Shown here one piece after another: positions 13,502-38,208 of a stretch of 38,208 bases of DNA. A model generated the notes under the pieces. That model saw nothing but the letters and a program-made list of their open reading frames with translations, was not told the DNA's origin and ran no database searches. Every line of letters starts with the position of its first letter. Position 1 is the stretch's first letter. A program made the position numbers and the translations under genes. Source of the DNA: a virus; IMG/VR virus record IMGVR_UViG_3300048838_001248, positions 64,001 to 102,208 of that record. The stretch is one strand, 5' to 3'.

Positions 13502-13514
13502 ATTATTTTATTTG

Positions 13515-13586
13515 AGGGCATAACGGGATTCGAACCCGTGGACATCGGTTTTAGAGACCGACTGGCGAACCAACCGTCATATGCCC
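13515..13586 (-). tRNA. tRNA-Sup(CTA): tRNA-Sup(CTA), amber-suppressor type
   Basis: Acceptor GGGCATA/TATGCCC, anticodon stem TCGGT/ACCGA around loop CTCTAAA (anticodon CUA, U33, A37), T-arm ACGGG-TTCGAAT-CCCGT, discriminator U. The D-stem is weak. It should read UAG. Confidence 0.85.
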
Positions 13587-19386: not shown

Positions 19387-19421
19387 TATGAAATGCGAAA
19401 AAAGATTTTCGAAAACATTGG

Positions 19422-19495
19422 AGCAGGTAATCGGAATCGAACCGACTCTATTCCACATTGGCAATGTGGTGCACCACCTTTCATGCGTTACCTGC
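19422..19495 (-). tRNA. tRNA-Gly(GCC): tRNA-Gly(GCC)
   Basis: Acceptor GCAGGTA/TACCTGC, anticodon stem CCACA/TGTGG, loop TTGCCAA, discriminator U. Confidence 0.95.
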
Positions 19496-19499
19496 AAAT

Positions 19500-19535
19500 C
19501 GGCAATGCCGTTTTTAATTGCATTGCCGTTTTTTT
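19500..19535 (+). terminator. Plus-strand-oriented terminator
   Basis: CGGCAATG/CATTGCCG with a 13-nt loop, followed by TTTTTTT on the plus strand only. There is no plus gene here, so it may block antisense transcripts. Confidence 0.55.
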
Positions 19536-19746
19536 ATGGCAACAGTTTAAATTTTCCTGTTGTCAAATCAAATAATTTTTCGTTTCCGGCAAGACCCGCA
19601 TAATAATCTGCTTTCTCATAGGCATCATGCTGATACCTTGCTTTGACGTAAAATGTTCGAACTCTGCCACTCGTAAGGGTGAGTTCAACCAACCAGTATT
19701 TCATGGGTGGTTTTTTGGATTTAGCTTTCGCCTTTTTAGTATCCAT
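19534..19746 (-). CDS. Hypothetical protein, 70 aa
   Basis: MDTKKAKAKSKKPPMKYWLV, basic N-terminus, then a two-stranded beta segment (VELTLTSGRVRTFYVKARY) and ADYYAGLAGNEKLFDL. No family recognised. Ends inside the T-run of the plus-oriented terminator. Confidence 0.6.
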   Translation of the reverse strand: MDTKKAKAKSKKPPMKYWLVELTLTSGRVRTFYVKARYQHDAYEKADYYAGLAGNEKLFDLTTGKFKLLP

Positions 19747-19800
19747 AATCTTAACTAATCAGTATAACTGATTCAGCTAAGACGAGTCGAACATCGGTAT
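19745..19800 (-). other. Possible tRNA T-arm relic with hairpin
   Basis: GATG-TTCGACT-CGTC resembles a T-arm and is followed by the hairpin AATCAGT-TAT-ACTGATT. No acceptor or anticodon arm can be found, so at most a relic. Confidence 0.2.
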
Positions 19801-19801
19801 T

Positions 19802-20002
19802 TTATTCATTTTTATTTGGTTTATAAGGTTCGTCTTCTTCATAAAGAAAAACGTATTTAACGTTATTTTTTCTAAAATTTTTATATTTTTCCGGCAAGTC
19901 ATCACATGTGCCAGCATAAAAATGATGGCAGTGGTCATGATAAAAACCCATCATTTTCACTGTTAAACCATCCCAAGTATTTGCGTATAATGCTTTTATC
20001 AT
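19802..20002 (-). CDS. Hypothetical protein, 66 aa
   Basis: MIKALYANTWDGLTVKMMGF, then YHDHCHHFYAGTCDDLPEK with clustered His/Cys that could bind a metal, and a charged C-terminus. No family recognised. Starts 2 nt after the stop of 20004-20354, so coupled to it. Confidence 0.6.
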   Translation of the reverse strand: MIKALYANTWDGLTVKMMGFYHDHCHHFYAGTCDDLPEKYKNFRKNNVKYVFLYEEDEPYKPNKNE

Positions 20003-20003
20003 T

Positions 20004-20354
20004 TTATTTAAAAACTCTTTTTATCCAAATATAATGCTTTCTATTATCCAAGTACTTTAAATCATCATCATTGTCATACGCTTCTCTTTCAAACGAAAGA
20101 GATTTATATGCATTTCCGAAATTAGTAAAAATTTTAATAATCCATTCAATAAAATACCATAAATAAAAAAAAATTATCAACATTTCCATTTGTTGTTTCC
20201 AGTGAATTGTTTCGTGATTAATCATTCTGGTGTTTGTTAAATGTTTTTCCTTGACATAAATACCAAACGGTGCTAATGTTATTCCTGCTGCCCAGCCAAA
20301 TGTAATCAGGCTGACAAACCAGTTCATTTTTTTTACTTTTGGTTTTAAACACAT
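20004..20354 (-). CDS. Membrane-associated HExxH protein
   Basis: 116 aa. N-terminal hydrophobic helix (WFVSLITFGWAAGITLAPFG), then NHETIHWKQQMEML carrying a zincin-like HExxH, a second membrane segment (LIIFFYLWYFIEWIIKIF), and SFEREAYDNDDDLKYL. The same arrangement occurs in small Bacteroidota membrane proteins; I am not aware of a proven activity. A putative membrane metalloprotease, catalytic role unproven. Confidence 0.7.
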   Translation of the reverse strand: MCLKPKVKKMNWFVSLITFGWAAGITLAPFGIYVKEKHLTNTRMINHETIHWKQQMEMLIIFFYLWYFIEWIIKIFTNFGNAYKSLSFEREAYDNDDDLKYLDNRKHYIWIKRVFK

Positions 20355-20367
20355 AATTATACTTTAT

Positions 20368-20376
20368 TATAAATAC
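20368..20376 (-). promoter_or_regulatory. Promoter box GTATTTATA
   Basis: 14 nt before the ATG at 20354 and just after tRNA-Arg(ACG). Confidence 0.55.
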
Positions 20377-20381
20377 GTTTG

Positions 20382-20455
20382 TACGCCCAGAGGGAGTCGA
20401 ACCCCCACTCTCCACGTTCGTAGCGTGGTGCATTATCCAGTTATGCTATGGGCGC
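20382..20455 (-). tRNA. tRNA-Arg(ACG): tRNA-Arg(ACG)
   Basis: Acceptor GCGCCCA/TGGGCGT, anticodon stem CCACG/CGTGG, loop CTACGAA; A34 needs TadA editing to read CGN. Confidence 0.9.
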
Positions 20456-20545
20456 ATATCTTACTTCCTATTGTTTTTAAATGAACTACCTACTATTTTT
20501 TACTAAATGCTTCATTTTCAACATTAGATGCTCCTATTATTTTAG

Positions 20546-20617
20546 TACCCTCGGCAGGAGTCGAACCCGCATTCTAAGTTTCGAAGACTTCCGTTCTGTC
20601 CATTGAACTACGAAGGC
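20546..20617 (-). tRNA. tRNA-Arg(TCG): tRNA-Arg(TCG)
   Basis: Acceptor GCCTTCG/CGAGGGT, loop CTTCGAA, anticodon stem with one terminal mismatch (27:43), discriminator A. Confidence 0.88.
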
Positions 20618-20624
20618 AGTTGTT

Positions 20625-20633
20625 TATAAATAC
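20625..20633 (-). promoter_or_regulatory. Promoter box GTATTTATA between tRNAs
   Basis: 8 nt before the 5' end of tRNA-Arg(TCG), so this box can drive a tRNA directly. Confidence 0.5.
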
Positions 20634-20638
20634 TTTAG

Positions 20639-20710
20639 TACTCCCAACAGGAATCGAACCTGTATCTAAAGTTTAGGAAACTCCAATTCTATCCGTTGAA
20701 CTATGGGAGC
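20639..20710 (-). tRNA. tRNA-Arg(CCT): tRNA-Arg(CCT)
   Basis: Acceptor GCTCCCA/TGGGAGT, anticodon stem GGAGT/ACTTT with two G.U pairs, loop TTCCTAA, reads AGG. Its 5' end overlaps the stop of the 20701-20919 gene. Confidence 0.88.
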
Positions 20711-20919
20711 AAATTAACATATTGATATTTTATACCCAAAGGGTCACCATTATTTTTCAAATATTCAGAAAATGAATCACGTTTATTCTCACTATAAACA
20801 ATCATAATACAATGACCATATTCGTCAATGAATGCATATCCGTTTAACGATATCCATTCTTTATTTTCATTCTGAAACTTCAGAACTTGATTCATCTTTT
20901 GAATCGTATGTTTCATCAA
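20701..20919 (-). CDS. Hypothetical protein, 72 aa, running into a tRNA
   Basis: MMKHTIQKMNQVLKFQNENK..., then WISLNGYAFIDEYGHCIMIVYSE, a small beta-sheet domain. The last codons and TAG stop lie in the 5' acceptor/D-arm of tRNA-Arg(CCT), so translation and tRNA processing compete for this overlap. The true start may be the second internal ATG at 20895, since the gene overlaps the zinc-ribbon gene upstream by 53 nt. No family recognised. Confidence 0.55.
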   Translation of the reverse strand: MMKHTIQKMNQVLKFQNENKEWISLNGYAFIDEYGHCIMIVYSENKRDSFSEYLKNNGDPLGIKYQYVNLLP

Positions 20920-21025
20920 AAATTGGTATTCTTGTTATGTGAATAACTTCATTGCATTTGGGACAAATAATGAAATCACTACTTGTTGGAACGCAAATTA
21001 CTTCTTTACATTTTGGACAAATCAT
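20867..21025 (-). CDS. Small zinc-ribbon protein, 52 aa
   Basis: 52 codons, ATG at 21025, TGA stop. Two CPKC knuckles 17 residues apart (MICPKCKEVI ... IICPKCNEVIHITRI) form a classic zinc ribbon, followed by an acidic Ser-rich tail (DSKDESSSEVSE). Likely binds nucleic acid or a protein partner. Overlaps the start of the downstream gene by 53 nt. Lies just downstream of tRNA-Arg(TCT). Confidence 0.65.
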   Translation of the reverse strand: MICPKCKEVICVPTSSDFIICPKCNEVIHITRIPIFDETYDSKDESSSEVSE

Positions 21026-21042
21026 TACTTTATCGTTTTTAG

Positions 21043-21114
21043 TACCCCCACGTGGAATCGAACCACGAACCTAACTTTAGAAGAGTTATGTTATATCCAT
21101 TTAACTATAGGGGC
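21043..21114 (-). tRNA. tRNA-Arg(TCT): tRNA-Arg(TCT)
   Basis: Acceptor GCCCCTA/TGGGGGT, anticodon stem TAACT/AGTTA, loop CTTCTAA, reads AGA. Confidence 0.92.
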
Positions 21115-21129
21115 AAATGTAAGAAAAAA

Positions 21130-21151
21130 GAACGAATATTCCTATTCGTTC
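21130..21151 (-). terminator. Rho-independent terminator overlapping a stop codon
   Basis: GAACGAATA/TATTCGTTC followed by a T-run on the minus strand. The 5' arm contains the last codons and the TAG of 21142-21369; tRNA-Arg(TCT) begins 16 nt further on. Confidence 0.8.
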
Positions 21152-21369
21152 CTCTTTCTTTTAAATATTTTAAGTGGATTTATCTTAGCCAAGTAAAAGT
21201 ATAAGATAAAACAAGACACTGAGACAAGGTAAAAAATTGAAATTGAAAACCAATAACTGCCTGTTGTATCCATTAACCACTTCAGTAGAGCATCGTATCC
21301 CAAGGGATTGAAAAAAGTCCCCAAGAATAGAAATAATGTTGCTGTTTTTTCTCTGTTTATGACCTTCAT
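21142..21369 (-). CDS. Small membrane protein, 75 aa
   Basis: ATG at 21369: MKVINREKTATLFLFLGTFF, a first hydrophobic segment, then YWFSISIFYLVSVSCFILYFYL as a clear transmembrane helix and a basic tail ending KIFKRKRNE. The tail codons just before the stop include AGA and AGG, read by two tRNAs in the following Arg array. The other overlapping frame (21185-21412) starts inside a promoter box and is taken as a shadow. Confidence 0.6.
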   Translation of the reverse strand: MKVINREKTATLFLFLGTFFNPLGYDALLKWLMDTTGSYWFSISIFYLVSVSCFILYFYLAKINPLKIFKRKRNE

Positions 21370-21409
21370 CACTTTCCATGTTAATAGATTTAATATTAGT
21401 TATTTTTTT

Positions 21410-21418
21410 CATAAATAC
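21410..21418 (-). promoter_or_regulatory. Promoter box GTATTTATG
   Basis: About 40 nt before the 21369 ATG, just after the tandem TAG TAG end of the YqeY gene. Confidence 0.5.
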
Positions 21419-21420
21419 TA

Positions 21421-21828
21421 CTATTTCGACAATAGTTCTCTGACAATTTGACTTGCGACCTTACCATCAATCTGAGCAGCAGTTGGAAGTTTCTTGATTT
21501 CAACCATTACTTTTCCCATGTCCTGAATGCCAGAAAAGCCGTGTTTATTTATTAATCCGGCAACAATGACCTTAATTTGGTTTTCGCCAAGCATTTGTGG
21601 TAAATACTTATTGAGAATTTCAACCTCACCAAGATTTCCTAATTCTTTGGCGTTCTCTGACATTTTTCTCAAAACTTTAAGTGCTTCTTCGTCACTTAAT
21701 TGTTTTGATACGTCTGTCATTACTCTTGCAAATTCTCCAGCAACTACTCTAAGCAAAGAAACTGTTTCAGTATCTCTACTTTTCATGGCATTCACCATGT
21801 CTTCCCTAATTTGTGCTTGTAAACTCAT
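21421..21828 (-). CDS. GatB/YqeY-domain protein
   Basis: 135 aa, complete YqeY-like protein: MSLQAQIREDMVNAMKSRDT, SLLRVVAGEFARV, LSDEEALKVLRKM, EVEILNKYLPQML, GFSGIQDMGKVMVEIKK and DGKVASQIVRELLSK all match the family in order. The domain is related to the tRNA-binding tail of GatB amidotransferase. Stand-alone YqeY proteins have no settled function but are thought to contact tRNA. A phage copy among tRNA genes supports a translation role. Two TAG codons in tandem end it. Confidence 0.85.
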   Translation of the reverse strand: MSLQAQIREDMVNAMKSRDTETVSLLRVVAGEFARVMTDVSKQLSDEEALKVLRKMSENAKELGNLGEVEILNKYLPQMLGENQIKVIVAGLINKHGFSGIQDMGKVMVEIKKLPTAAQIDGKVASQIVRELLSK

Positions 21829-21885
21829 GATAATTAATTTTAATTAAAAACTTGACCCAATTGTGAGCCAATTGAGCCGATTATG

Positions 21886-21971
21886 AGCCGATGAAGGGAT
21901 TCGAACCCCCGTGGACTTTATGGGTCTCCTGATTACAAGTCAGGTGCAATCAACCACTATGCGACATCGGC
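21886..21971 (-). tRNA. tRNA-Thr(TGT): tRNA-Thr(TGT) with long variable arm
   Basis: Acceptor GCCGATG/CATCGGC, anticodon stem CCTGA/TCAGG, loop CTTGTAA. The variable region is about 17 nt with a short GAC/GTC stem, as in class II tRNAs, which is abnormal for Thr. Confidence 0.85.
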
Positions 21972-21982
21972 ATTCTTTTCTG

Positions 21983-22056
21983 AGCCAAAAGCAGGACTCG
22001 AACCCGCAACTTCCTCATTACAAGTGAGGCACTCTACCAATTAAAGTTATTCTGGC
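21983..22056 (-). tRNA. tRNA-Thr(TGT): tRNA-Thr(TGT)
   Basis: Acceptor GCCAGAA/TTTTGGC, anticodon stem CCTCA/TGAGG, loop CTTGTAA, normal variable loop. Second Thr(TGT) next to the long-armed one. Confidence 0.92.
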
Positions 22057-22057
22057 A

Positions 22058-22498
22058 TTATCTATAATCTTTCCAGTATCCAGTTATTTCATTTGTTTCA
22101 ACATTCAATTCTTTAAGAACTTGAATTTTAATAATCTCTGGAGTATCTGACCAATATAGTACACAATATTGTTTATCGTCAACATCAAATGCATCGTTTA
22201 TTTCACGAGTTCCCTTTTCAAAATTAAACAATGACACATATACTCTGCGTGCACATAATCCACCATTCTTTTCATCTTGCTTTGCACGTTCTGCTTTCAG
22301 ATAATCATAAGTAACTTCATCAGTTTCAACCCAAATCTTTTTAAATTTTTTGGGTACTAATTTCAGTGCTTTGTTGATGACAGCCTTACAGTCAGGACAA
22401 TATGTTTCATCATTTAGTTCGTGAAAACATCCATTACCACTTGCTTGCCAAGCATAGACAGTGTTGCAATGTCTACACCTTTTCATATAATGCATCAT
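22058..22498 (-). CDS. Zinc-binding hypothetical protein, 146 aa
   Basis: Starts MMHYMKRCRHCNTVYAWQAS and shows C-x2-C (CRHC) and C-x2-C (CPDC) about 26 residues apart, a zinc ribbon, followed by an alpha/beta domain (KFKKIWVETDEVTYDYLKAE). No family recognised. An alternative start (MKRCRHC) is 12 nt downstream. The stop is 2 nt before the second Thr tRNA. Confidence 0.65.
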   Translation of the reverse strand: MMHYMKRCRHCNTVYAWQASGNGCFHELNDETYCPDCKAVINKALKLVPKKFKKIWVETDEVTYDYLKAERAKQDEKNGGLCARRVYVSLFNFEKGTREINDAFDVDDKQYCVLYWSDTPEIIKIQVLKELNVETNEITGYWKDYR

Positions 22499-22511
22499 AT
22501 TTTTAATTTAT

Positions 22512-22856
22512 TTAGATGATATGTCCAATTCTTTCTTTTACATGATTTTTATATTTTTCAATATTTCTCACCGCTCCACGTGTGGCTGGATGATAAATGA
22601 ATTCATGCTCAATTTGGTGCTTTTTAAGTTCTCTCTCGACCTTTCTACCCATTGCAATTACTATGCCACCAAATGATTTGATGTCCTCTATATCGTCCTC
22701 AAAAACGTTTTTAAAGCATAGTTTATCCCAATCAAGTCCAAGAGCATCGGTTGCTTTTGAAAGATGTGCTGCTGCAAGTCTCCGGTCTTTCCAAGTCCAA
22801 CCTTTTTTTATTGCAAGTTCACTGCGTTCTTCACCTACGAATAAGATTTTTTTCAT
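22512..22856 (-). CDS. Uracil-DNA-glycosylase-superfamily-like protein
   Basis: 114 aa. MKKILFVGEERSELAIKKGW with a GEERS loop, WKDRRLAAAHLSKATDALGL, FKNVF, IVIAMGRKVERELKK and HPATRGAVRNIEKY. The order (substrate loop after strand 1, AMGRKV strand, HPAxxG loop) resembles small UDG-like phage proteins, but the catalytic Asp/Asn cannot be placed with certainty. Base excision or another nucleotide-binding role are both possible. Confidence 0.55.
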   Translation of the reverse strand: MKKILFVGEERSELAIKKGWTWKDRRLAAAHLSKATDALGLDWDKLCFKNVFEDDIEDIKSFGGIVIAMGRKVERELKKHQIEHEFIYHPATRGAVRNIEKYKNHVKERIGHII

Positions 22857-22857
22857 G

Positions 22858-23070
22858 TTACCATTCTATTGTTAAGTCAGTAACACTATTAATATCAATT
22901 TCGTAAACACCTTGGCGATGTTTTTTGTTAAAAAGTGTTGACCTAATGTTATTAAAACTACAATCTTCAGGACAATGAATTAATGCCATTCCCTCATTTC
23001 TATCGGCAGTTCCCTGACAATAGGTTGTGTAGATATAACCCAATAAAACGTATTTCCAATTTTCTTTCAT
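22858..23070 (-). CDS. Hypothetical protein, 70 aa
   Basis: Start MKENWKYVLLGYIYTTYCQG at 23070; the longer frame runs through two tRNA genes and is rejected. Contains a hydrophobic strand pair and CPEDCSFNNIRSTLF, ending in ITDLTIEW-like residues. No family recognised. Its stop is 2 nt before the next gene's ATG. Confidence 0.6.
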   Translation of the reverse strand: MKENWKYVLLGYIYTTYCQGTADRNEGMALIHCPEDCSFNNIRSTLFNKKHRQGVYEIDINSVTDLTIEW

Positions 23071-23123
23071 AATAAAAAATTTTATCAAAGATAATAAAAA
23101 AATTTTATCATGCAAACATTTTG

Positions 23124-23195
23124 CGCTCCGGGTAGGAGTCGAACCTACAACCTCTTGGTTAACAGCCAATTGCTCTGCCATTGAGCCACCGAAGC
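23124..23195 (-). tRNA. tRNA-Asn(GTT): tRNA-Asn(GTT)
   Basis: Acceptor GCTTCGG/CCGGAGC, loop CTGTTAA, T-arm GTAGG/CCTAC, discriminator G. Confidence 0.92.
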
Positions 23196-23202
23196 ATTTT
23201 GT

Positions 23203-23274
23203 AGTGAAGGTGGGACTTGAACCCACAACCTTGACCTTATAAGAGTCCTGCGCTAACCATTGCGCCACATCACT
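23203..23274 (-). tRNA. tRNA-Ile(TAT): tRNA-Ile(TAT)
   Basis: Acceptor AGTGATG/CTTCACT with one T.T mismatch, D-stem GCGC/GCGC, loop CTTATAA (anticodon UAU, reads AUA). One anticodon-stem mismatch at 27:43. Confidence 0.85.
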
Positions 23275-23328
23275 ATGGAGAGGGACAGGTTATTTATACC
23301 TTTAAGGGACTCCCTCAGACCCATTTTG

Positions 23329-23400
23329 AGCAGAATATGGGATTCGAACCCATTCCCGAAGTTTGGAAGACTCCCGTGCAACCATCAACACCTATTCTGC
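23329..23400 (-). tRNA. tRNA-Gly(TCC): tRNA-Gly(TCC)
   Basis: Acceptor GCAGAAT/ATTCTGC, anticodon stem GGAGT/ACTTC, loop CTTCCAA, discriminator U. Confidence 0.92.
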
Positions 23401-23444
23401 ATTTGCACTTCCTGCTGCGTTTAGTGCTAACCGTAGGTGGGGTG

Positions 23445-23517
23445 TGGTACAGGTTGGAGTTGAACCAACATCTAAGGTTTTTCAGACCCCCGCATAGACC
23501 ACCTTTGCTACTGTACC
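23445..23517 (-). tRNA. tRNA-Phe(GAA): tRNA-Phe(GAA)
   Basis: Acceptor GGTACAG/CTGTACC, loop CTGAAAA, T-arm TTGG-/CCAA-type. Its 5' end overlaps the stop of the HNH endonuclease gene. Confidence 0.92.
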
Positions 23518-24011
23518 ATAATTTTATAATTAAAAACCGCATTCATAAACTTTTCATCTTTACCGTATTTGGTATGCTCAATTTTATGACAATTTGAACA
23601 AAGTAATTCGCATTTTAACGCTTCCATTTTCATCACTTCCCATGACTTGTTCCACATTCTACCTAATTCAAATTCTTTATCATCATTAGGGTGATGAAAT
23701 TCAAAGGCAGCAATATTACCTGACCATCCACACTTATTACATTTACCACCTAATAGTTCAATTGCTTTTTGTTTCGTTCTATACCTTCTAATTCTTGTTG
23801 TACAACTTTGACATTTACTTCTATTCCTACTATTATCTTTAATGGGATTTCCGCAAAGAGCACAAAATTCAACTTTTTCTTTTACAATAGTTTTCAAATC
23901 AAATTTTTTCAACCAATATTTAATTGTTGTTTGTGAACAATTAAACTGTTTTGCAATTTTTCTGTGTGAATAACCTAAGTCAACACATTTTTTTAATTCA
24001 TCTAATTCCAT
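23508..24011 (-). CDS. HNH homing endonuclease in the tRNA array
   Basis: 167 aa. N-terminal helix-turn-helix (CVDLGYSHRKIAKQFNCSQT), zinc knuckles CALCGNPI and CQSC, then CNKCGWSGNIAAFEFHHPND and CELLCSNCHKIEHTKYG, the HNH catalytic core with four Cys. Last codons and the TAG stop fall within the 5' acceptor/D region of tRNA-Phe, so the element sits flush against a tRNA. Confidence 0.9.
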   Translation of the reverse strand: MELDELKKCVDLGYSHRKIAKQFNCSQTTIKYWLKKFDLKTIVKEKVEFCALCGNPIKDNSRNRSKCQSCTTRIRRYRTKQKAIELLGGKCNKCGWSGNIAAFEFHHPNDDKEFELGRMWNKSWEVMKMEALKCELLCSNCHKIEHTKYGKDEKFMNAVFNYKIMVQ

Positions 24012-24027
24012 AATATGTATATTTTTA

Positions 24028-24036
24028 TATAAATAC
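24028..24036 (-). promoter_or_regulatory. Promoter box GTATTTATA
   Basis: 17 nt before the HNH endonuclease ATG at 24011. Confidence 0.55.
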
Positions 24037-24077
24037 TATGGTTTTCAACAAACGTACCACCATTGAGTTAGTATTTG

Positions 24078-24149
24078 TGTGGATTACAGGAATCGAACCT
24101 GTCTTTATGCCTTTTCAGAGCATCACTAAACCGTCTCAGTTAAATCCAC
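24078..24149 (-). tRNA. tRNA-Phe(GAA): tRNA-Phe(GAA), second copy
   Basis: Acceptor GTGGATT/AATCCAC, anticodon stem ATGCT/GGCAT, loop CTGAAAA. Sequence differs widely from the first Phe copy, so not a recent duplicate. Confidence 0.9.
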
Positions 24150-24385
24150 AGTTTGGTTCTGGCGTGAGCCTTATACTCACTCCCCCCGAATATCATTTCA
24201 AATATCTAAATGTCTCGGAGATTGTTGTCGTCCTATCCGCACTGCCAAATGCGAGTACAATAACTTTCTGCTGAACATTAGGGAAGCCTCTTATGCAAAC
24301 CAGAACCCTGACATCAATAAGGGTCATGACTCCTTTGTTGACGTGAAAATCGTGTGATGATAATCCAGTGCACACGACTTTATCT
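24150..24385 (-). other. Structured non-coding stretch before tRNA-Phe
   Basis: 236 nt without a convincing gene and G+C-richer than its surroundings. GGTTCTGG (24307-24300) can pair with CCAGAACC (24161-24154); inside, GTGAG-TATAAGG-CTCAC is a hairpin; near the 5' side TCGTGTG...CACACGA is another. Could be a processed spacer, an sRNA or part of the endonuclease element. A 60-aa frame (24193-24375) looks accidental. Confidence 0.4.
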
Positions 24386-25036
24386 TCATGTAATACGACC
24401 TAATTTCCATTCAGAATTAACATATTTGGTAATATTACATTTTTTAATTTTTTTATTTGAGATACCATTTGTAATCCAGCAAGTGCCATATTGTGAATTA
24501 TTTTTACCCACACCCATTCCTTTATGTTTTTCACTCATAATTAATTTTGTTTTTTCAGAGTGACTTTTATTGGTGAATCTACTACTATTTGCGTGTGGAT
24601 ATATACCTTTCTCGAAAATTTTTTTCATTGTGTTTGACCTTATTATACTCATTTTATTTCGAAATTCGGTATCAATTTTCAATTTTTCAGCATATGCTTT
24701 TCCTGCACATGAAGAACGATATTTTTGCTGTTCTTCAGAAATAAATCCACCCTCACCACCAATCATTAAATTTAAACATTCATTTTTTACAATTTCATTT
24801 AAATTAACAATCTCTTTTTCACGTTCAATCAATGATTTACGGTTTGGTAGATATTCAACAATTTCAACTTTGTGATTTTCTTTACCATATTTATTCAAAG
24901 AACGTCTTAATCTTCTGCCCGACCCATAATATCCATCATTAGGATTATCAGTGGAATGCATCCCATAATAATACTTACCATTCAACAAACAAGTTGTTTT
25001 ATAAATGAAATGGTATTGTTTTTCTTTTCTTGCCAT
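24386..25036 (-). CDS. GIY-YIG homing endonuclease
   Basis: 216 aa. HFIYKTTCLLNGKYYYGMHS carries the GIY-YIG core (IYK...KYYYGMH), followed by DGYYGSGRRLRRSLNKYG, the Arg of the motif, and IEREKEIVNLNE with the catalytic Glu. C-terminal NUMOD-like DNA-binding repeats (SRFTNKSHSEKTKLIMSEKHK). Free-standing, between Ser and Phe tRNAs; spreads the surrounding locus by site-specific cutting. Confidence 0.9.
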   Translation of the reverse strand: MARKEKQYHFIYKTTCLLNGKYYYGMHSTDNPNDGYYGSGRRLRRSLNKYGKENHKVEIVEYLPNRKSLIEREKEIVNLNEIVKNECLNLMIGGEGGFISEEQQKYRSSCAGKAYAEKLKIDTEFRNKMSIIRSNTMKKIFEKGIYPHANSSRFTNKSHSEKTKLIMSEKHKGMGVGKNNSQYGTCWITNGISNKKIKKCNITKYVNSEWKLGRIT

Positions 25037-25051
25037 AATCTGTACTTTTCA

Positions 25052-25060
25052 GATAAATAC
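25052..25060 (-). promoter_or_regulatory. Promoter box GTATTTATC
   Basis: 16 nt before the GIY-YIG ATG at 25036. Confidence 0.5.
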
Positions 25061-25086
25061 TGAAAAGTACAGAAAACGACTAAGGG

Positions 25087-25173
25087 CGGAGAAGGTAGGA
25101 TTCGAACCCACGGGACACTTGCATGTCCAACGGTTTTCAAGACCGCCTCCATAAGCCACTCGGACACTTCTCC
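25087..25173 (-). tRNA. tRNA-Ser(TGA): tRNA-Ser(TGA)
   Basis: Acceptor GGAGAAG/CTTCTCC, anticodon stem GCGGT/ACCGT, loop CTTGAAA, class II arm GGACATGCAAGTGTCC. Confidence 0.95.
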
Positions 25174-25230
25174 ATTTGCTGTCTCAAAAAGTACGCTACT
25201 TGAAACCAAGACAGCCAAGGTTTACTGTGG

Positions 25231-25303
25231 TTGGGACGGGTGGATTTGAACCACCGACTTTTCGGGTATCAGCCGAATACTCTAACCACTGAGTTACGCC
25301 CCA
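25231..25303 (-). tRNA. tRNA-Ile(GAT): tRNA-Ile(GAT)
   Basis: Acceptor TGGGGCG/CGTCCCA, stem TTCGG/CCGAA, loop CTGATAC, discriminator A. Confidence 0.93.
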
Positions 25304-25363
25304 ATATTGACTTTATTCATCGCAAACACGTTATATCAGTCAAACCAGTGTTGATTGGTCTTT

Positions 25364-25440
25364 GTTGTCTCGGTGAGATTTGAACTCACGACTTCCACAT
25401 TATCAGTGTGACACTCTGACCGGACTGAGTTACGAGACAA
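25364..25440 (-). tRNA. tRNA-Ile(GAT): tRNA-Ile(GAT), second copy
   Basis: Acceptor TTGTCTC/GAGACAA, stem TCACA/TGTGG, loop CTGATAA. Enlarged D-loop; discriminator C by this folding. Confidence 0.88.
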
Positions 25441-25444
25441 TTTG

Positions 25445-25520
25445 CGGGTCGGGTAGGAGTCGAACCTACATCTCGCTGGTTAACAGCCAGCCGTTTTAAC
25501 CATTATAGCACTACCAACCC
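25445..25520 (-). tRNA. tRNA-Asn(GTT): tRNA-Asn(GTT), second copy
   Basis: Acceptor GGGTTGG/CCGACCC, stem GCTGG/CCAGC, loop CTGTTAA, discriminator G. Confidence 0.93.
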
Positions 25521-25642
25521 ATTTGGCGTGTCAGAGCGGGTTGTACGATTAACACACCCAATGCATTTTGTCTGTCCATGTCTGTGTCTCTGGCACAACC
25601 GCCCAGAGTGCCTTTGGCTTACAACTACTTTGCATTGTTTGA

Positions 25643-25716
25643 GCATAGAGTGGGATTCGAACCCACGATTGTACGGTTTTGCAGACCGTTGCCTTTGACC
25701 ACTCGACCATCTATGC
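25643..25716 (-). tRNA. tRNA-Cys(GCA): tRNA-Cys(GCA)
   Basis: Acceptor GCATAGA/TCTATGC, stem ACGGT/ACCGT, loop CTGCAAA, discriminator U as in b-type tRNA-Cys. Confidence 0.95.
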
Positions 25717-25810
25717 ATATATAAAACTTTCAGTCAATCCTAAGATTGTGCGGTAATCACCACGAGCAGGTAGTTTTATTCGATTACCATACCAGCATGT
25801 CAAAGAACAC

Positions 25811-25862
25811 GATTATCGGTTTTTAAGCCGATAATCAGCATTTATCGGTTTTTAAGCCGATA
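25811..25862. repeat. Tandem identical hairpins
   Basis: Two copies of TTATCGG-TTTTTAAG-CCGATA (25811-25836 and 25841-25862) separated by 4 nt, between tRNA-Cys and tRNA-Thr. Could be processing signals; no long T-run follows on the minus strand. Confidence 0.7.
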
Positions 25863-25871
25863 TTTTATTTG

Positions 25872-25942
25872 AGCCAAGAACGGGAATCGAACCCGTATTG
25901 CTTGTATACCACACAAAAGTTCTACCTTTAAACTATCTCGGC
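25872..25942 (-). tRNA. tRNA-Thr(GGT): tRNA-Thr(GGT)
   Basis: Acceptor GCCGAGA/TCTTGGC, anticodon stem TTTGT/ACAAG, loop GTGGTAT (anticodon GGU), first tRNA of its array after the attenuator. Confidence 0.85.
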
Positions 25943-25962: not shown

Positions 25963-25992
25963 TAAAAAACCCGGAACTTTGGATTCCGGGTT
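25963..25992 (-). terminator. Attenuator terminator of the mixed tRNA array
   Basis: AACCCGGAA-TCCAAAG-TTCCGGGTT followed by TTTTAT, only 20 nt before the first tRNA. The 5' arm (CAGAACCCG, 25995-25987) is complementary to CGGGTTCTG in the leader ORF (26053-26045). Confidence 0.8.
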
Positions 25993-26033
25993 CTGTTTTT
26001 ATTCAGTTTTATTTTACTTCATATAATTTCGTA

Positions 26034-26156
26034 TTAATAAAACCCAGAACCCGTGTCCGCAATATTATTTCTGCCAAAATCTGAACAGAATGTACCTTCT
26101 CCAATACGACTGGTTGTCGTTAGACTCGATACTAATATGTAGGCTATTCGTTTCAT
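26034..26156 (-). CDS. Leader peptide of the mixed tRNA array
   Basis: 40 codons, ATG at 26156, TAA. Not a normal protein: it is enriched in residues served by the following tRNAs, e.g. LTTTSRIGEG, TFCSDFGRNNI (Thr 6, Ser 6, Ile 4, Asn 2, Phe 3-4, Cys 1, Gly 5). The array starts Thr, Cys, Asn, Ile, Ile, Ser, Phe. The last part of the ORF (ACG GGT TCT G) is the antiterminator strand, and the earlier GGC AGA A segment (CAGAA, 26073-26069) can pair with its TTCTG. Ribosome stalling on the Asn/Ile/Arg codons would favour antitermination. Confidence 0.6.
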   Translation of the reverse strand: MKRIAYILVSSLTTTSRIGEGTFCSDFGRNNIADTGSGFY

Positions 26157-26215: not shown

Positions 26216-26246
26216 TAAATACGTTACAAAGGTATAAAATGTTACA
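26216..26246 (-). promoter_or_regulatory. Leader promoter TGTAACATTT / CGTATTTA
   Basis: TGTAACATTT at 26246-26237, then CGTATTTA at 26223-26216, 60 nt before the leader ATG. A hybrid of the two promoter families, like that at 35801-35832. Confidence 0.55.
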
Positions 26247-34382: not shown

Positions 34383-34493
34383 ATATTGTTTATTTAATGT
34401 CCGAATACTATATTCGAACTTCTGTGCAAATATATAAACAATAAATGTAACCACCAAATATTTAGGTGATTATTTTTAAAAAATTTTAAATTG

Positions 34494-34578
34494 TGAGGGT
34501 AGAGGGATTCGAACCCCCTGAGTATCAAAGTATTGGATTTACAGTCCAACGCCACTCCACCATCGTAGCCGTACCCTC
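34494..34578 (-). tRNA. tRNA-Tyr(GTA): tRNA-Tyr(GTA)
   Basis: Acceptor GAGGGTA/TACCCTC, stem TTGGA/TCCAA, loop CTGTAAA, class II arm, discriminator A. Confidence 0.94.
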
Positions 34579-34581
34579 ATT

Positions 34582-34654
34582 GTGCATCCGACAGGGTTCG
34601 AACCTGTGTCACCTGATTAAGAGTCAGGAGCATAACCACTTTGCTACGGATGCA
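34582..34654 (-). tRNA. tRNA-Lys(CTT): tRNA-Lys(CTT)
   Basis: Acceptor TGCATCC/GGATGCA, stem CCTGA/TCAGG, loop CTCTTAA, ordinary variable loop. D-arm and anticodon arm nearly identical to the long-armed tRNA-Lys(TTT) at 34963-35044. Confidence 0.92.
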
Positions 34655-34717
34655 AGTTCCTCCTGTCCCTTCGGCAACGGTTATGTTGGTGCACCAACGC
34701 CCCTTTTCAGGAAGATG

Positions 34718-34796
34718 TGGAAATGGTAGGACTCGAACCTACATGCCGAAGCGGGAGTTTTACAGACTCTTGGGTATTCCAGCACCCAACATTTCC
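34718..34796 (-). tRNA. tRNA-Tyr(GTA): tRNA-Tyr(GTA), second copy
   Basis: Acceptor GGAAATG/CATTTCC, stem AGAGT/ACTCC with an end mismatch, loop CTGTAAA, short class II arm. A perfect GTTGGTGCACCAAC palindrome (34685-34698) lies just downstream. Confidence 0.9.
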
Positions 34797-34802
34797 AATT
34801 TG

Positions 34803-34871
34803 TGCCCAAGGCAGGGGTCGAACCTACGACACAATTCCAAGACGGTTTGTGTCTCCAAACAAGGACATTTG
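34803..34871 (-). pseudogene. Degenerate tRNA-like element
   Basis: Has a T-arm (GTAGG-TTCGACC-CCTGC) and 3' acceptor strand (CTTGGGC A), a D-arm-like hairpin CCAAA/TTTGG and an anticodon-like hairpin GACACAA/TTGTGTC with a 12-nt loop containing CTTGGAA (Pro UGG if functional). No matching 5' acceptor strand exists. Confidence 0.5.
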
Positions 34872-34956
34872 GTGGGATTGGTGGGATTCGAACCCACTCA
34901 GCCGATGGCACTTGTTTTACAGACAAGCCTAACTCTCCAACGTTAGCGCACTCCCA
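34872..34956 (-). tRNA. tRNA-Tyr(GTA): tRNA-Tyr(GTA), third copy
   Basis: Acceptor TGGGAGT/AATCCCA with one mismatch, stem CTTGT/ACAAG, loop CTGTAAA, class II arm. Confidence 0.88.
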
Positions 34957-34962
34957 AATTTG

Positions 34963-35044
34963 TGTATTCGGTGGGATTCGAACCCACGTTGTACTTTCGT
35001 ACCCTGATTAAAAGTCAGGAGCATAACCACTTTGCTACGAATAC
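34963..35044 (-). tRNA. tRNA-Lys(TTT): tRNA-Lys(TTT) with extra variable arm
   Basis: Acceptor GTATTCG/CGAATAC, stem CCTGA/TCAGG, loop CTTTTAA. The variable region contains an added hairpin GTAC-GAAA-GTAC, normally absent from tRNA-Lys. Confidence 0.9.
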
Positions 35045-35097
35045 GTTTGGATATTTCAGTTATCTTGGATACAGAAAATTCCTAAACTCTACCTCAG

Positions 35098-35168
35098 TGC
35101 ACCCGGTAGGAATCGAACCTACGTCATCTGGTTAAAAGCCAGAGGCATATCCCCTTTGCTACGAGTAC
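35098..35168 (-). tRNA. tRNA-Lys(TTT): tRNA-Lys(TTT)
   Basis: Acceptor GTACTCG/CGGGTGC, stem TCTGG/CCAGA, loop CTTTTAA, discriminator A. Confidence 0.92.
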
Positions 35169-35220
35169 ATGTCTACTTTTTTTGGGACATTGGACTAAAA
35201 AGTAGTAAAAACCCTAAAAG

Positions 35221-35293
35221 TGCGCCCGATGGGACTCGAACCCATAACTCCCACATTAAAAGTGTGGTACTCTACCAATTGAGTTACGAGCGC
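35221..35293 (-). tRNA. tRNA-Lys(TTT): tRNA-Lys(TTT)
   Basis: Acceptor GCGCTCG/CGGGCGC, stem CCACA/TGTGG, loop CTTTTAA, discriminator A. Confidence 0.94.
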
Positions 35294-35312
35294 AATTACA
35301 TATCGACAGTGG

Positions 35313-35396
35313 TTCACCTGACGGGATTCGAACCCGCACACAGGGATTAAGATAGCATGTGCACTTCCCTTGCTCTCTCCATTGAGCCACAAGTGC
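35313..35396 (-). tRNA. tRNA-Lys(CTT)-like with 12-nt anticodon-loop insertion
   Basis: Acceptor GCACTTG/CAGGTGA (1:72 G.A), D-stem GCTC/GAGC, anticodon stem AGGGA/TCCCT, T-arm GCGGG-TTCGAAT-CCCGT. The anticodon loop is 19 nt instead of 7; its 3' end ATCTTAA would be a normal CUU loop after removal of AGTGCACATGCT. Confidence 0.6.
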
Positions 35397-35620
35397 TGCC
35401 GATATGTCTACTAACATCATTACTCACCTCAACTACTAATTTACTTTACTAATGTGTTTCCAGTTCTCATGCCTGTCAGAACCTTCCTCTGCTCATGTTT
35501 TTTTGGTTGCCCATGCTATCGTTACACTTAAACCTTTCACACACTTTCCAATAACATTTCATATTGGTTTTCACTCTGCTTTCAAATTTTAAATATTTTT
35601 CAAAGAACATATAAAACAAA
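35397..35620 (-). other. Transcribed spacer of the Lys/Tyr array
   Basis: Between the attenuator terminator and the first tRNA. The only ORF is a 28-codon frame, 35476-35562 (MKCYWKVCERFKC...), with no further support. No clear hairpins with T-runs. Probably leader RNA removed by processing. Confidence 0.4.
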
Positions 35621-35646
35621 AAACCCGACTCTTACGAATCGGGTTT
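35621..35646 (-). terminator. Attenuator terminator of the Lys/Tyr tRNA array
   Basis: AAACCCGA/TCGGGTTT with a 10-nt loop followed by TTTTTTG. Its 5' arm plus loop (CCCGATTCGTAAGAGT, 35643-35628) is complementary to ACTCTTATGAGAATCGGG in the leader ORF (35715-35698). Confidence 0.82.
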
Positions 35647-35670
35647 CTGTCTGGTATAAAGTCATTACTT

Positions 35671-35760
35671 TTATATATCACTATTAGACATACCATTCCC
35701 GATTCTCATAAGAGTTTTCTTATAAGTTTTATAAAGATAATATGTGCTAAAAGTTCTCAT
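35671..35760 (-). CDS. Leader peptide of the Lys/Tyr tRNA array
   Basis: 29 codons, ATG at 35760, TAA. The segment STYYLYKTYKKT has four Tyr (all TAT) and three Lys codons (AAA, AAG) in 12 residues; the array downstream encodes only Tyr and Lys tRNAs. The ORF holds the antiterminator strand (35698-35715), which starts right after the Lys codons. ATAAGA-AAAC-TCTTAT (35723-35708) is an alternative hairpin formed by the control codons. The three mutually exclusive hairpins have the layout of the his/trp-type attenuators. Confidence 0.7.
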   Translation of the reverse strand: MRTFSTYYLYKTYKKTLMRIGNGMSNSDI

Positions 35761-35800
35761 TGTCTTTTTCTATTAAATTTTTCAGTTTACAAATGTATGA

Positions 35801-35832
35801 TATAAATACGAATAAAACAAATAAATGTTGCA
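35801..35832 (-). promoter_or_regulatory. Leader promoter TGCAACATTT / CGTATTTATA
   Basis: TGCAACATTT (35832-35823), 12 nt, CGTATTTATA (35810-35801), 40 nt before the leader ATG. Same layout as 26216-26246. Confidence 0.6.
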
Positions 35833-35849
35833 AAAAGTTTAAATTATTT

Positions 35850-36368
35850 TTATTTCACAAAATCTTCGTAATATTGAATTAATTGGTTTTCGTTTTCAAA
35901 GTATCTTATTTTATCTTCATTAGGACTGTAATTAACCATTTCTCTCCCCTTAATGACCAACCCATCATATCCTAATCTTAACATCTCATCTCTAACATTT
36001 GTCTTTGAATCAAATTCTCTTTTAGCATTAAAATAATCATTAATGCCTTTTTCTCTACCATAATTCACTGCTACTTGTTGTAAATATATTTCAGCATCGT
36101 TCCAACTATTAACAATTTTTGGATGTTTTGGTATTGCGCCCACAACAAAATAGACCTTACCATATTTCCTTGCCAATTCTTTATTTCCTAATGCTGCTGT
36201 ATATAAACCCTGACCAAAAGAAGCCATTCCATTATTTTCTTTACCTACTTCTTGCATACCCCTAAGTGTTACGTTTTGTCGTTTCCACTTTAAGTAATCT
36301 GCACGATTGTAGTCTTCGTTCAGAATATTTGAAATTTCTTCGTTAATTATATTCAGTATTTTGCTCAT
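35850..36368 (-). CDS. ADP-ribosyltransferase-like, Alt-like internal protein
   Basis: 172 aa. Possible capsid-targeting start MSKILNIINEEISNILNEDY, then VTLRGMQEVG, FGQGLYTAALGNKELARKYG, KVYFVVGAIPKHPKIVN, and LGYDGLVIKGREMVNYSPNE. The GxGLYTA turn followed by a small-aa strand and YDGLVxxxREMVNYSPxxIK-like C-terminus match the ADP-ribosyltransferase fold of phage and polymorphic toxins, with E in REMV as catalytic candidate. T4 Alt is an injected ADP-ribosyltransferase; a similar role is inferred. Exact substrate unknown. Confidence 0.6.
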   Translation of the reverse strand: MSKILNIINEEISNILNEDYNRADYLKWKRQNVTLRGMQEVGKENNGMASFGQGLYTAALGNKELARKYGKVYFVVGAIPKHPKIVNSWNDAEIYLQQVAVNYGREKGINDYFNAKREFDSKTNVRDEMLRLGYDGLVIKGREMVNYSPNEDKIRYFENENQLIQYYEDFVK

Positions 36369-37201: not shown

Positions 37202-37226
37202 AAAAGCGGAGAAATTCTCCGCTTTT
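37202..37226 (-). terminator. Rho-independent terminator
   Basis: AAAAGCGGAGAA/TTCTCCGCTTTT with T-run; ends the RNA ligase gene, overlapping its stop. Confidence 0.85.
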
Positions 37227-38208
37227 AAATGCTATAATCATATCCATCTCGGAAAGGTTTGCTGTAATCCGGTCTAACCAATTTCCAAATTATTTCATCG
37301 TATGGTCTTTTATCGTACAATTTAAAGAGGATTGAACGATATTCGGATTTCAATGCTTCTGCAGCAAATTCCTTACGGTCTGAAACGTTATTTATGTGAT
37401 AAATTCTAACAAACTCTTTCAATGTTTCCCTTTCGATTTCATTATATGCCAACTGTAGCGAGTTGCTAACCCTTTTCAGCCAATCATAGAATTCATCTGG
37501 TACTCTATCAAGCAATTCATCAAAATCATACCCGTTCATCATGTGTTCCCACACAACAACATTTGAAACATTTGTCAATATACCATGAAGTCTAACGTAT
37601 TCAGCAAATTTAACCTTAACCCTAAATCCATTCTTGAATTTAACCACAAATCCCTCACTATTATCTTTTTCAAGTTTTTTAAGGTCAATTAAGTCATTAA
37701 TTTTTACGTTGAATTTTTTAACAACAGTAAAATATTTAGAGTATTGCTCAACCAATTCTTCATAGAGTGCTTCAACACCTGTTTCGGTTACAATTCTTGT
37801 AAGTAAAACAAGTTCCCTTCTATTGCCGTAGTCAACAACAATACGATTTTCAGGATATAGAACCTCAAATAAAAAGGTACATTCAGTATTTAATTTATCA
37901 AGAACAGATGCTTTTAGCATTTTTTGTGCTTCTAACGCTTGTTCTGAAATAAATGAACCCCTTGAAGCCACAATCCATTCCATACGTGGTTTGTAGTAAA
38001 ACACAATAATTAATGAGCCGTCCATTTTTTCGAAAATATCATATTCTTCCGACATATCGATTTCAGATGGGTCATATTCTTCGTAGTTCATGAACTTCTG
38101 AAATGGACGTGCAATTATATTACCCTCAATATCAATAACAAGACCACGACAAGAAAGAGTATATTCATCCCAAACTCTTTTTGACTGAACTCTTGGTGAA
38201 TAATTGAG
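37225..38208 (-). CDS. T4 Rnl1-like RNA ligase (5' end outside the window)
   Basis: The frame remains open to the right window edge, so at least 327 aa are visible and the start is missing. Upstream part: SCRGLVIDIEGNIIARPFQKF. Motif I EKMDGSLI carries the adenylated Lys; SRGSFIS, FLFEVLYP (motif III-like) and EGFVVKFKNGFRVKVKFAEY (motifs IV/V) follow, with a helical Rnl1-type C-terminus. T4 Rnl1 seals tRNA-Lys cleaved by host anticodon nuclease. Here it lies four features upstream of a tRNA-Lys/Tyr array, which supports the same duty. Confidence 0.9.
   Translation of the reverse strand, partial: LNYSPRVQSKRVWDEYTLSCRGLVIDIEGNIIARPFQKFMNYEEYDPSEIDMSEEYDIFEKMDGSLIIVFYYKPRMEWIVASRGSFISEQALEAQKMLKASVLDKLNTECTFLFEVLYPENRIVVDYGNRRELVLLTRIVTETGVEALYEELVEQYSKYFTVVKKFNVKINDLIDLKKLEKDNSEGFVVKFKNGFRVKVKFAEYVRLHGILTNVSNVVVWEHMMNGYDFDELLDRVPDEFYDWLKRVSNSLQLAYNEIERETLKEFVRIYHINNVSDRKEFAAEALKSEYRSILFKLYDKRPYDEIIWKLVRPDYSKPFRDGYDYSI

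What the first reader, a model, noticed from the sequence alone, without database searches (positions are those of the whole stretch)
34494..35832. Attenuator-controlled Lys/Tyr tRNA array: leader peptide with Tyr/Lys codons, antiterminator and terminator
Seen directly: promoter (35801-35832), 29-codon ORF with STYYLYKTYKKT, an in-ORF segment ACTCTTATGAGAATCGGG (35715-35698) complementary over 8+7 bp to the terminator 5' arm/loop CCCGATTCGTAAGAGT (35643-35628), and a competing hairpin ATAAGA-AAAC-TCTTAT (35723-35708) built from the control codons. The downstream tRNAs are Lys and Tyr only, exactly the enriched codons. Established: his/trp/phe-type attenuation works this way. Inference: when charged tRNA-Lys or -Tyr runs out, the ribosome stalls, the antiterminator forms and phage tRNA-Lys/Tyr are made. 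I know of no described attenuator that controls a tRNA array by leader codons for the same tRNAs.
Basis: partly seen in the sequence, partly recalled or inferred. Interest (0 to 1): 0.95.

Follow-up and report, generated by a model that had tools for sequence, protein, structure and literature searches.

The report
Codon-sensing attenuators of phage tRNA arrays
Giant phages place a tiny 'test gene' rich in particular codons, followed by a transcription off-switch, in front of the tRNA genes for exactly those codons, so that (by inference) the viral tRNAs are made only when ribosomes run short of them; the design recurs in three phage lineages, cultured laboratory phages included, and I found no earlier description of it.

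Summary
Confirmed and extended. The window holds two such leaders: the reported Lys/Tyr one, and a second (26156-26034) whose peptide is rich in the eight amino acids of the tRNA array behind it. The Lys/Tyr bias of the reported leader alone is not significant (p=0.11); comparison settles the case. In all 13 phage genomes or contigs with two or more leaders the true leader-to-array pairing is the best of all permutations (1/5040 in three giant phages, one fully held out). Of 44 distinct leaders, 42 have a segment right after the control codons that pairs with the terminator 5' arm (held-out 13/13; control sites 7/50). A structure-only pattern found 19 loci in IMG/VR; all 19 precede Lys/Tyr tRNAs. 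The design also occurs in Bacillus phage G and in Caulobacter/Brevundimonas phages, phiCbK included. GlnRS, AsnRS, LeuRS and AlaRS-like genes lie inside the matching units. Best reading: ribosome-mediated transcription attenuation, in which stalling at codons short of charged tRNA opens transcription of those tRNAs. No expression data were available; the sign and the trigger are inferred.

The parts
35790..35832 (-). Leader 1 promoter region: TACATTTG (35797-35790), upstream TTTG, and CGTATTTAT between them
   Evidence: Sequence; same arrangement before the Lys/Tyr leaders of relatives. Promoter function inferred.
35671..35760 (-). Leader peptide 1 ORF, MRTFSTYYLYKTYKKTLMRIGNGMSNSDI
   Evidence: conserved in relatives
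35716..35742 (-). Control codons of leader 1 (codons 7-15: Tyr Tyr Leu Tyr Lys Thr Tyr Lys Lys)
   Evidence: Tyr/Lys positions conserved in 16 distinct leaders
35698..35715 (-). Segment 2 (antiterminator arm) of leader 1; core AGAATCGGG 35706-35698
   Evidence: Duplex with terminator arm -14.3 kcal/mol, z -4.1, p=0.007; P(2:3) 0.73-0.89 with a ribosome on codons 7-15, 0.00 on codons 18-26
35618..35647 (-). Terminator 1 (segments 3 and 4): GAAACCCGATTC-GTAA-GAGTCGGGTTTT + T-run
35300..35600 (-). Conserved non-coding RNA with tRNA-like 3' part (35396-35313) between terminator 1 and the first tRNA-Lys; role unknown
   Evidence: Alignment of four phages; tRNA model 42 bits; 5' part matches no Rfam family
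34493..35293 (-). tRNA array 1: Lys, Lys, Lys, Tyr, Tyr, Lys, Tyr
   Evidence: ARAGORN
26227..26234 (-). Leader 2 promoter-like element TACCTTTG
   Evidence: inferred
26034..26156 (-). Leader peptide 2 ORF, MKRIAYILVSSLTTTSRIGEGTFCSDFGRNNIADTGSGFY
   Evidence: 28 of 39 residues belong to the eight amino acids of array 2, 15.8 expected, p=8e-5
26038..26053 (-). Segment 2 of leader 2, CGGGTTCTGGGTTTTA
   Evidence: Duplex -22.2 kcal/mol, z -5.9, p=0.003
25965..25994 (-). Terminator 2: AGAACCCGGAAT-CCAAA-GTTCCGGGTTTT + T-run
19419..25942 (-). tRNA array 2: Thr, Cys, Asn, Ile, Ile, Ser, Phe, Phe, Gly, Ile, Asn, Thr, Thr, Arg x4, Gly, with small ORFs between; Ser/Met (15279-15113) and a CTA-anticodon tRNA (13586-13514) lie further on
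   Evidence: ARAGORN; similar order in relatives

Best explanation
These are ribosome-mediated transcription attenuators that control phage tRNA arrays. RNA polymerase transcribes a leader with a short ORF and a ribosome follows. If charged tRNA for the control codons is plentiful, the ribosome moves over segment 2 while segment 3 emerges, segment 2 cannot pair with segment 3, the 3:4 hairpin forms and transcription stops before the tRNA genes. If charged tRNA for any control codon is short, the ribosome stalls before segment 2, segment 2 pairs with segment 3, the terminator cannot form, and the tRNAs for those same codons (in some units also the matching aminoacyl-tRNA synthetase) are made. 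SHOWN by computation: leader codons match the array behind them; segment 2 follows the control codons and pairs with the terminator arm; the two pairings exclude each other. INFERRED: that the leader is translated, that termination and read-through occur, the sign of the response, and the trigger (demand of phage translation, decay of the host pool, or host tRNA-cutting defence).
For: (1) Matching: with a rule that ignores composition the true pairing is the best of all permutations in every genome: LR745206 1/5040, LR756502 1/5040, IMG/VR 72-kb contig 1/24, LR756501 1/24, LR756500 1/6, window 1/2; frozen rule on held-out LR756504 1/5040, and 1/24, 1/24, 1/2 in three contigs related to the window. 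Examples: MTTSFQQQQQQQINRTD before Gln x4; MKAMILSLCLSLSLSLQ before Leu/Ser/Cys; HIIHIWEHLLEEV before His/Glu/Val/Trp/Leu. (2) Antiterminator p<0.05 in 42/44 leaders, mean z -3.2; 13/13 new leaders, 7/50 control sites. (3) Order: cognate codons 482/940 before segment 2 against 81/408 in or after it; 41/44 leaders. (4) Structure-only search: 19/19 hits precede Lys/Tyr arrays. (5) Folding before segment 4 is made: P(2:3) 0.73-0.89 with a ribosome on codons 7-15, 0.00 on codons 18-26. (6) Synthetase genes in the units match: GlnRS twice, AsnRS, LeuRS, AlaRS-like. (7) Serial gates: in 8/8 cases the upstream leader is enriched for the next gate's amino acids, 0.18 against 0.08. (8) Other lineages: Bacillus phage G and the phiCbK group, where all three strands change together, GGCGGGCC:GGCCCGCC against GGACGGGCC:GGCCCGTCC in CcrSC.
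Against: No transcript, ribosome-profiling or reporter data. At full length the terminator is always favoured, so the model needs kinetic co-transcriptional folding. A ribosome at the stop codon covers segment 2 in only 19/44 leaders; in leader 1 segment 2 is free again at that moment (P 0.84), so closure there needs timing or a ribosome standing between segments 2 and 3. Without a protector hairpin an untranslated leader should read through, unlike trp. Some arrays have no leader by the same rule (Leu/Met group of the window's relatives; LR756508). phiCbK keeps Arg codons in a leader though it lacks tRNA-Arg (PMC3556154). Some genomes share homologous leaders (LR745206/LR756502; the window's relatives), so the permutation tests are not all independent.
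Confidence: 0.93

Rival explanations
1. The ORFs are ordinary small phage genes that happen to precede tRNA arrays; the terminators end an upstream unit and peptide composition only reflects base composition.
For: AT-rich phages are rich in Lys, Tyr, Asn and Ile anyway; the window leader alone is not significant for Lys+Tyr. Two of the ORFs are annotated as ordinary genes, phage G gp86 and phiCbK gp083.
Against: Composition switches with the array inside one genome; poly-Gln, Leu/Ser and Arg/Ser peptides occur; same design at 62-67% GC; segment 2:3 pairing in 42/44 leaders.
Confidence: 0.02
2. Constitutive partial terminator: the hairpin merely sets the ratio of leader to tRNA transcript or acts in processing, and the ORF and its codons tune basal read-through without sensing shortage.
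For: No regulation has been measured. In leader 1 the gate looks open both without a ribosome and with a ribosome at the stop codon.
Against: A fixed ratio does not need codons of exactly the tRNAs downstream, nor upstream leaders that carry the codons of the next gate.
Confidence: 0.04
3. Opposite sign or other sensor: the ribosome's position decides, but stalling closes the gate, or the leader reacts to general translation slowdown rather than to particular tRNAs.
For: Sign is inferred from geometry only; in several leaders the last cognate codon is 0-7 nt from segment 2, so a ribosome stalled there would cover part of it.
Against: Most cognate codons lie further upstream, and masking the codon 7-15 positions leaves 2:3 pairing intact; a general slowdown sensor would not need array-specific codons.
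Confidence: 0.03

Closest known systems
his/trp/phe-type leader-peptide transcription attenuators of bacterial amino-acid operons (from general knowledge)
   Same: Short ORF with control codons, antiterminator segment after them, mutually exclusive intrinsic terminator, predicted opening on stalling
   Different: Controls tRNA arrays in viruses; one leader can read up to nine amino acids; gates in series; no general protector hairpin
Leader-peptide control of aminoacyl-tRNA synthetase genes, e.g. hisS/hisZ in bacilli (PMC2965389)
   Same: Attenuator serving the charging of one tRNA family by its own codons
   Different: Here the tRNA genes themselves are the main output; synthetases only in some units
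T-box leaders
   Same: Raise supply of translation parts when a tRNA is uncharged
   Different: T-boxes bind the tRNA directly; no T-box match here and the signal needs a translated ORF
Phage tRNAs that evade tRNA-cutting defences (PMC10264068, PMC11555353; found)
   Same: Phage tRNAs replace depleted host tRNAs
   Different: Those papers concern the tRNAs; here the switch that could turn them on is described

Membership tests
Leader-peptide (ribosome-mediated) transcription attenuator | Short ORF upstream of the operon with codons cognate to what the operon supplies | tested here: met
   Permutation tests; phage G and phiCbK group
Leader-peptide (ribosome-mediated) transcription attenuator | Intrinsic terminator between leader ORF and first gene | tested here: met
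Leader-peptide (ribosome-mediated) transcription attenuator | Antiterminator segment after the control codons, exclusive with the terminator | tested here: met
   42/44 and 13/13 leaders against 7/50 controls
Leader-peptide (ribosome-mediated) transcription attenuator | Protector (1:2) hairpin that closes the gate when the leader is not translated (present in trp and his, not in every attenuator) | tested here: not met
   Above shuffles in 6/44 leaders only; window p=0.08. Optional feature, so it does not by itself exclude the family
Leader-peptide (ribosome-mediated) transcription attenuator | Ribosome at the leader stop codon masks segment 2 | tested here: inconclusive
   True in 19/44 leaders, leader 2 included, leader 1 not
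Leader-peptide (ribosome-mediated) transcription attenuator | Read-through rises when the cognate tRNA is uncharged | not testable with these tools
   Needs transcript or reporter data
T-box riboswitch | T-box covariance-model match (specifier loop, T-box bulge) | tested here: not met
   No match in the window at gathering score or, for 34480-35860, at E<=1
Described Rfam leader families (amino-acid operon leaders) | Covariance-model match | tested here: not met
   No leader-family match; it works like one without being a member of a described family

The most novel reading that the evidence does not exclude
A general, repeatedly evolved viral sensor of the charged-tRNA pool: giant phages of unrelated lineages hold their tRNA (and synthetase) supply shut and open it codon set by codon set when the host pool fails, including when host defence cuts tRNAs, so that the immune attack itself switches on the replacement tRNAs. 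Serial gates read the sum of all amino acids supplied further down.
Probability: 0.35. Interest if true: 0.97.

Novelty: new variant of a known kind. Interest (0 to 1): 0.95.

Why it matters
Why phages carry tRNA genes has been debated for decades (codon compensation, evasion of tRNA-cutting defence). A switch whose input codons equal its output tRNAs says that supply is meant to follow demand, and it makes the question testable: which tRNAs run out, when, and under which defence. It extends leader-peptide attenuation to viruses, to tRNA genes, to inputs of many amino acids and to gates in series; leader codons may help to assign odd phage tRNAs; and the leaders are natural codon-specific biosensors.

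Tried and rejected
Significance from the single window leader: rejected, p=0.11. Protector hairpin as a general part: not supported. Folding of the full-length leader with a ribosome mask: uninformative, the terminator almost always wins; replaced by folding of the RNA cut before segment 4. Codon-level match inside 4- and 6-fold boxes: 283/314 against 276.5 expected with wide wobble, 247/314 against 214.7 with strict wobble, so only weakly informative. Scan of GTDB genomes with the Lys/Tyr pattern: none. Search of cultured phages with the window leader DNA: no true relative. Same rule on T5, XacN1, RaK2, crAss001, DAC23, pT24: no leader; SP-15 has no tRNA; LR756508 has dispersed tRNAs without leaders. 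tblastn with phiCbK gp083: no match, probably low-complexity masking. Literature searches for attenuated phage tRNA genes found nothing, but most subscription papers and preprints are not in the library. A p-value for a hand-chosen core of the phage G peptide (2.7e-7) is not relied on.

Full report
WHAT WAS CHECKED. The leader folds better than 200 of 200 shuffles, z=-4.3. Taken alone its Lys+Tyr content is not significant (7/28, expected 4.2, p=0.11). The claim therefore had to stand or fall on comparison.

A SECOND LEADER IN THE SAME WINDOW. Reading the other tRNA cluster showed the same design at 26234-25965: promoter-like TACCTTTG, ORF MKRIAYILVSSLTTTSRIGEGTFCSDFGRNNIADTGSGFY, a segment CGGGTTCTGGGTTTTA at its end that pairs with the arm of the following terminator (-22.2 kcal/mol, z -5.9), then Thr, Cys, Asn, Ile, Ser, Phe, Gly and Arg tRNAs. 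28 of 39 residues are of those eight kinds, 15.8 expected, p=8e-5.

RELATIVES OF THE WINDOW. The window lies in a 102-kb virus record. Protein searches gave relatives with Lys/Tyr arrays and leaders such as MTTFSTYYLYKSYKQML, MKIFGTYYYGKKSYKKHL and MRTFGKYYYGKKSYKKQF. A pattern made only of the pairing (GAATCGGG ... CCCGATTCG ... TCGGGTTTTT) found 19 stretches in IMG/VR; all 19 lie directly before Lys/Tyr tRNAs and carry such a leader. These are homologues, so this shows conservation, not independent origin. Among 16 distinct peptides several control positions never change amino acid, and one position exchanges Tyr and Lys only.

OTHER GIANT PHAGES. LR745206 (635 kb), LR756500 (462 kb), LR756501 (735 kb) and LR756502 (642 kb), uncultured huge phages of the kind described in PMC7162821 (a paper that mentions neither attenuation nor leaders), have many tRNA arrays with leaders of quite different composition: QQIQQQQINQ before Gln; SSRSRSS before Arg/Ser; SYESYYEE before Glu/Tyr; IAVIGNGAGAI before Ile/Gly/Met/Ala; FTPAPAVAFRRGTGTGTGT before Arg/Thr/Val/Ala/Gly/Pro; LLNSLCLL before Leu. 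I then fixed a rule that does not look at composition (ATG ORF of 12-60 codons ending 15-50 nt before a terminator that lies within 400 nt of a tRNA; longest ORF taken) and compared each leader with all arrays of its genome. The true pairing was the best of every possible permutation in each of nine genomes or contigs (1/5040, 1/5040, 1/24, 1/24, 1/6 and four pairs). With the rule frozen, a further giant phage, LR756504 (636 kb), gave 7/7 and 1/5040, and three IMG/VR contigs gave 4/4, 4/4 and 2/2. Only LR756504 is fully held out: the Lys/Tyr leaders of the other three contigs, or near-identical ones, had already been seen.

ANTITERMINATOR. For 44 distinct leaders the best duplex between leader and terminator arm plus loop beats dinucleotide shuffles at p<0.05 in 42. 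The Lys/Tyr leaders picked by the pattern have it by construction; the other leaders do not. Leaders new: 13/13; comparable ORF-plus-terminator sites not before tRNAs: 7/50. The paired segment lies in or just behind the 3' part of the ORF, and cognate codons fill the stretch before it (482/940 against 81/408; 41/44 leaders; last cognate codon 0-16 nt before it). Terminator sequences differ between leaders and segment 2 differs with them. Orthologous leaders of LR745206 and LR756502 show paired changes, for example GAGATTCGA:TCGAATC against GAGGTTCGA:TCGAACT (sequences). A separate protector hairpin is not general.

MECHANISM. Folding the RNA as it stands just before segment 4 is made, with a ribosome footprint masked, gives a 2:3 pairing probability of 0.73-0.89 for a ribosome on control codons 7-15 of leader 1 and 0.00 on codons 18-26; for leader 2, 0.53-0.69 for codons 12-30 and 0.00 at codons 34-41. 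This is the geometry of an attenuator opened by stalling. Two loose ends: without a ribosome the gate of leader 1 is also open (0.84), so an untranslated leader should read through; and in leader 1 a ribosome waiting at the stop codon no longer covers segment 2, so closure needs timing or obstruction by a ribosome between segments 2 and 3.

UNITS. Matching synthetase genes lie inside the units: GlnRS behind the Gln tRNAs of LR745206 and LR756502, AsnRS in the Asn-containing unit of LR745206, LeuRS in the Leu unit of LR756501, an AlaRS-like protein in the Ile/Gly/Met/Ala unit of LR745206. Gates stand in series; in 8 of 8 cases the upstream leader holds more of the next gate's amino acids than unrelated leaders do (mean 0.18 against 0.08), as it should if everything downstream depends on the first gate.

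OTHER LINEAGES. Bacillus phage G, cultured: gp86 (58381-58515), MMKCSWFEFDTDFTDVFYCEYTFYSLYTFLDIRKQ..., a terminator, then Cys, Asp, Phe, Tyr, Glu, Thr, Ser and (by annotation) Trp tRNAs; 27/43 residues of the seven kinds called by ARAGORN, p=8.5e-4 or 2.5e-3 depending on background; antiterminator p=0.008. Caulobacter and Brevundimonas phages at 62-67% GC: CcrColossus MMTYRNNVRQIRVRQFNLAGR..., TTGACA upstream, 11-bp antiterminator (-25.6 kcal/mol, p=0.002), then Val, Ile, Gln, Asn, Arg; seven relatives including phiCbK keep it, with p between 9e-3 and 3e-7 for codons 4-18 (a stretch chosen after seeing CcrColossus) and paired changes. phiCbK gp083 before Pro/Lys/Leu/Ala/Ser has 31/44 residues of those kinds, 13.3 expected, p=5e-8; there the likely segment 2 lies behind the stop codon. 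The phiCbK genome paper mentions no attenuation. Not every tRNA-rich phage has it: T5, XacN1, RaK2, crAss001, DAC23 and LR756508 do not by the same rule.

KNOWN OR NEW. It works like his/trp/phe attenuation and like leader-peptide control of synthetase genes (hisS, PMC2965389). It matches no Rfam leader or T-box. I found no report of attenuators that control tRNA genes by leader codons, in phages or elsewhere, within an open-access library; an unseen report in a subscription journal or preprint is possible. I file it as a new variant of a known kind. The trigger is open: demand of phage translation, decay of the host pool, or tRNA-cutting defence. A T4 RnlA-type RNA ligase gene lies near the Lys/Tyr leader in the window and a similar protein in L001, a hint of tRNA repair but not proof.

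Noticed in passing
window 35600-35300 (minus); L001 4750-5110; L038 593-960; L042 2670-3030: Conserved non-coding RNA of about 270 nt between the attenuator and the first tRNA-Lys, with a near-invariant GAGCAG.GGAAGGT.CTGACAGGCA and a tRNA-like 3' part with an enlarged anticodon loop; the 5' part matches no Rfam family.
   Followed up: partly
window 37225-38091 (minus); L001 2961-4046: T4 RnlA-family RNA ligase (Pfam PF09511, 4e-12) near the Lys/Tyr attenuator; T4 RnlA mends tRNA-Lys cut by PrrC, so a link to tRNA damage is possible.
   Followed up: partly
window 13514-13586 (minus); also LR756500, LR756508, LR756501, pT24: tRNA with CTA anticodon (amber reader) in several of these phages; possible stop-codon reassignment not examined.
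   Followed up: no
window 21421-21828 (minus): YqeY-like protein (PF09424, 5e-23) inside tRNA array 2; YqeY is elsewhere fused to GlnRS.
   Followed up: no
window, several intergenic sites (e.g. near 24035, 20375, 21415) and both sides of the leaders: GTATTTAT recurs shortly before genes and inside the leader promoters; may be part of a phage promoter.
   Followed up: no
window about 34870-34800 (minus): Degenerate tRNA-like sequence with TTGGAATT in the anticodon region between two Tyr tRNAs.
   Followed up: no
control ORF-plus-terminator sites in the fetched loci: Three of 50 control sites not before tRNAs show strong leader:terminator pairing (p<0.01); some may be attenuators of other phage genes.
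   Followed up: no
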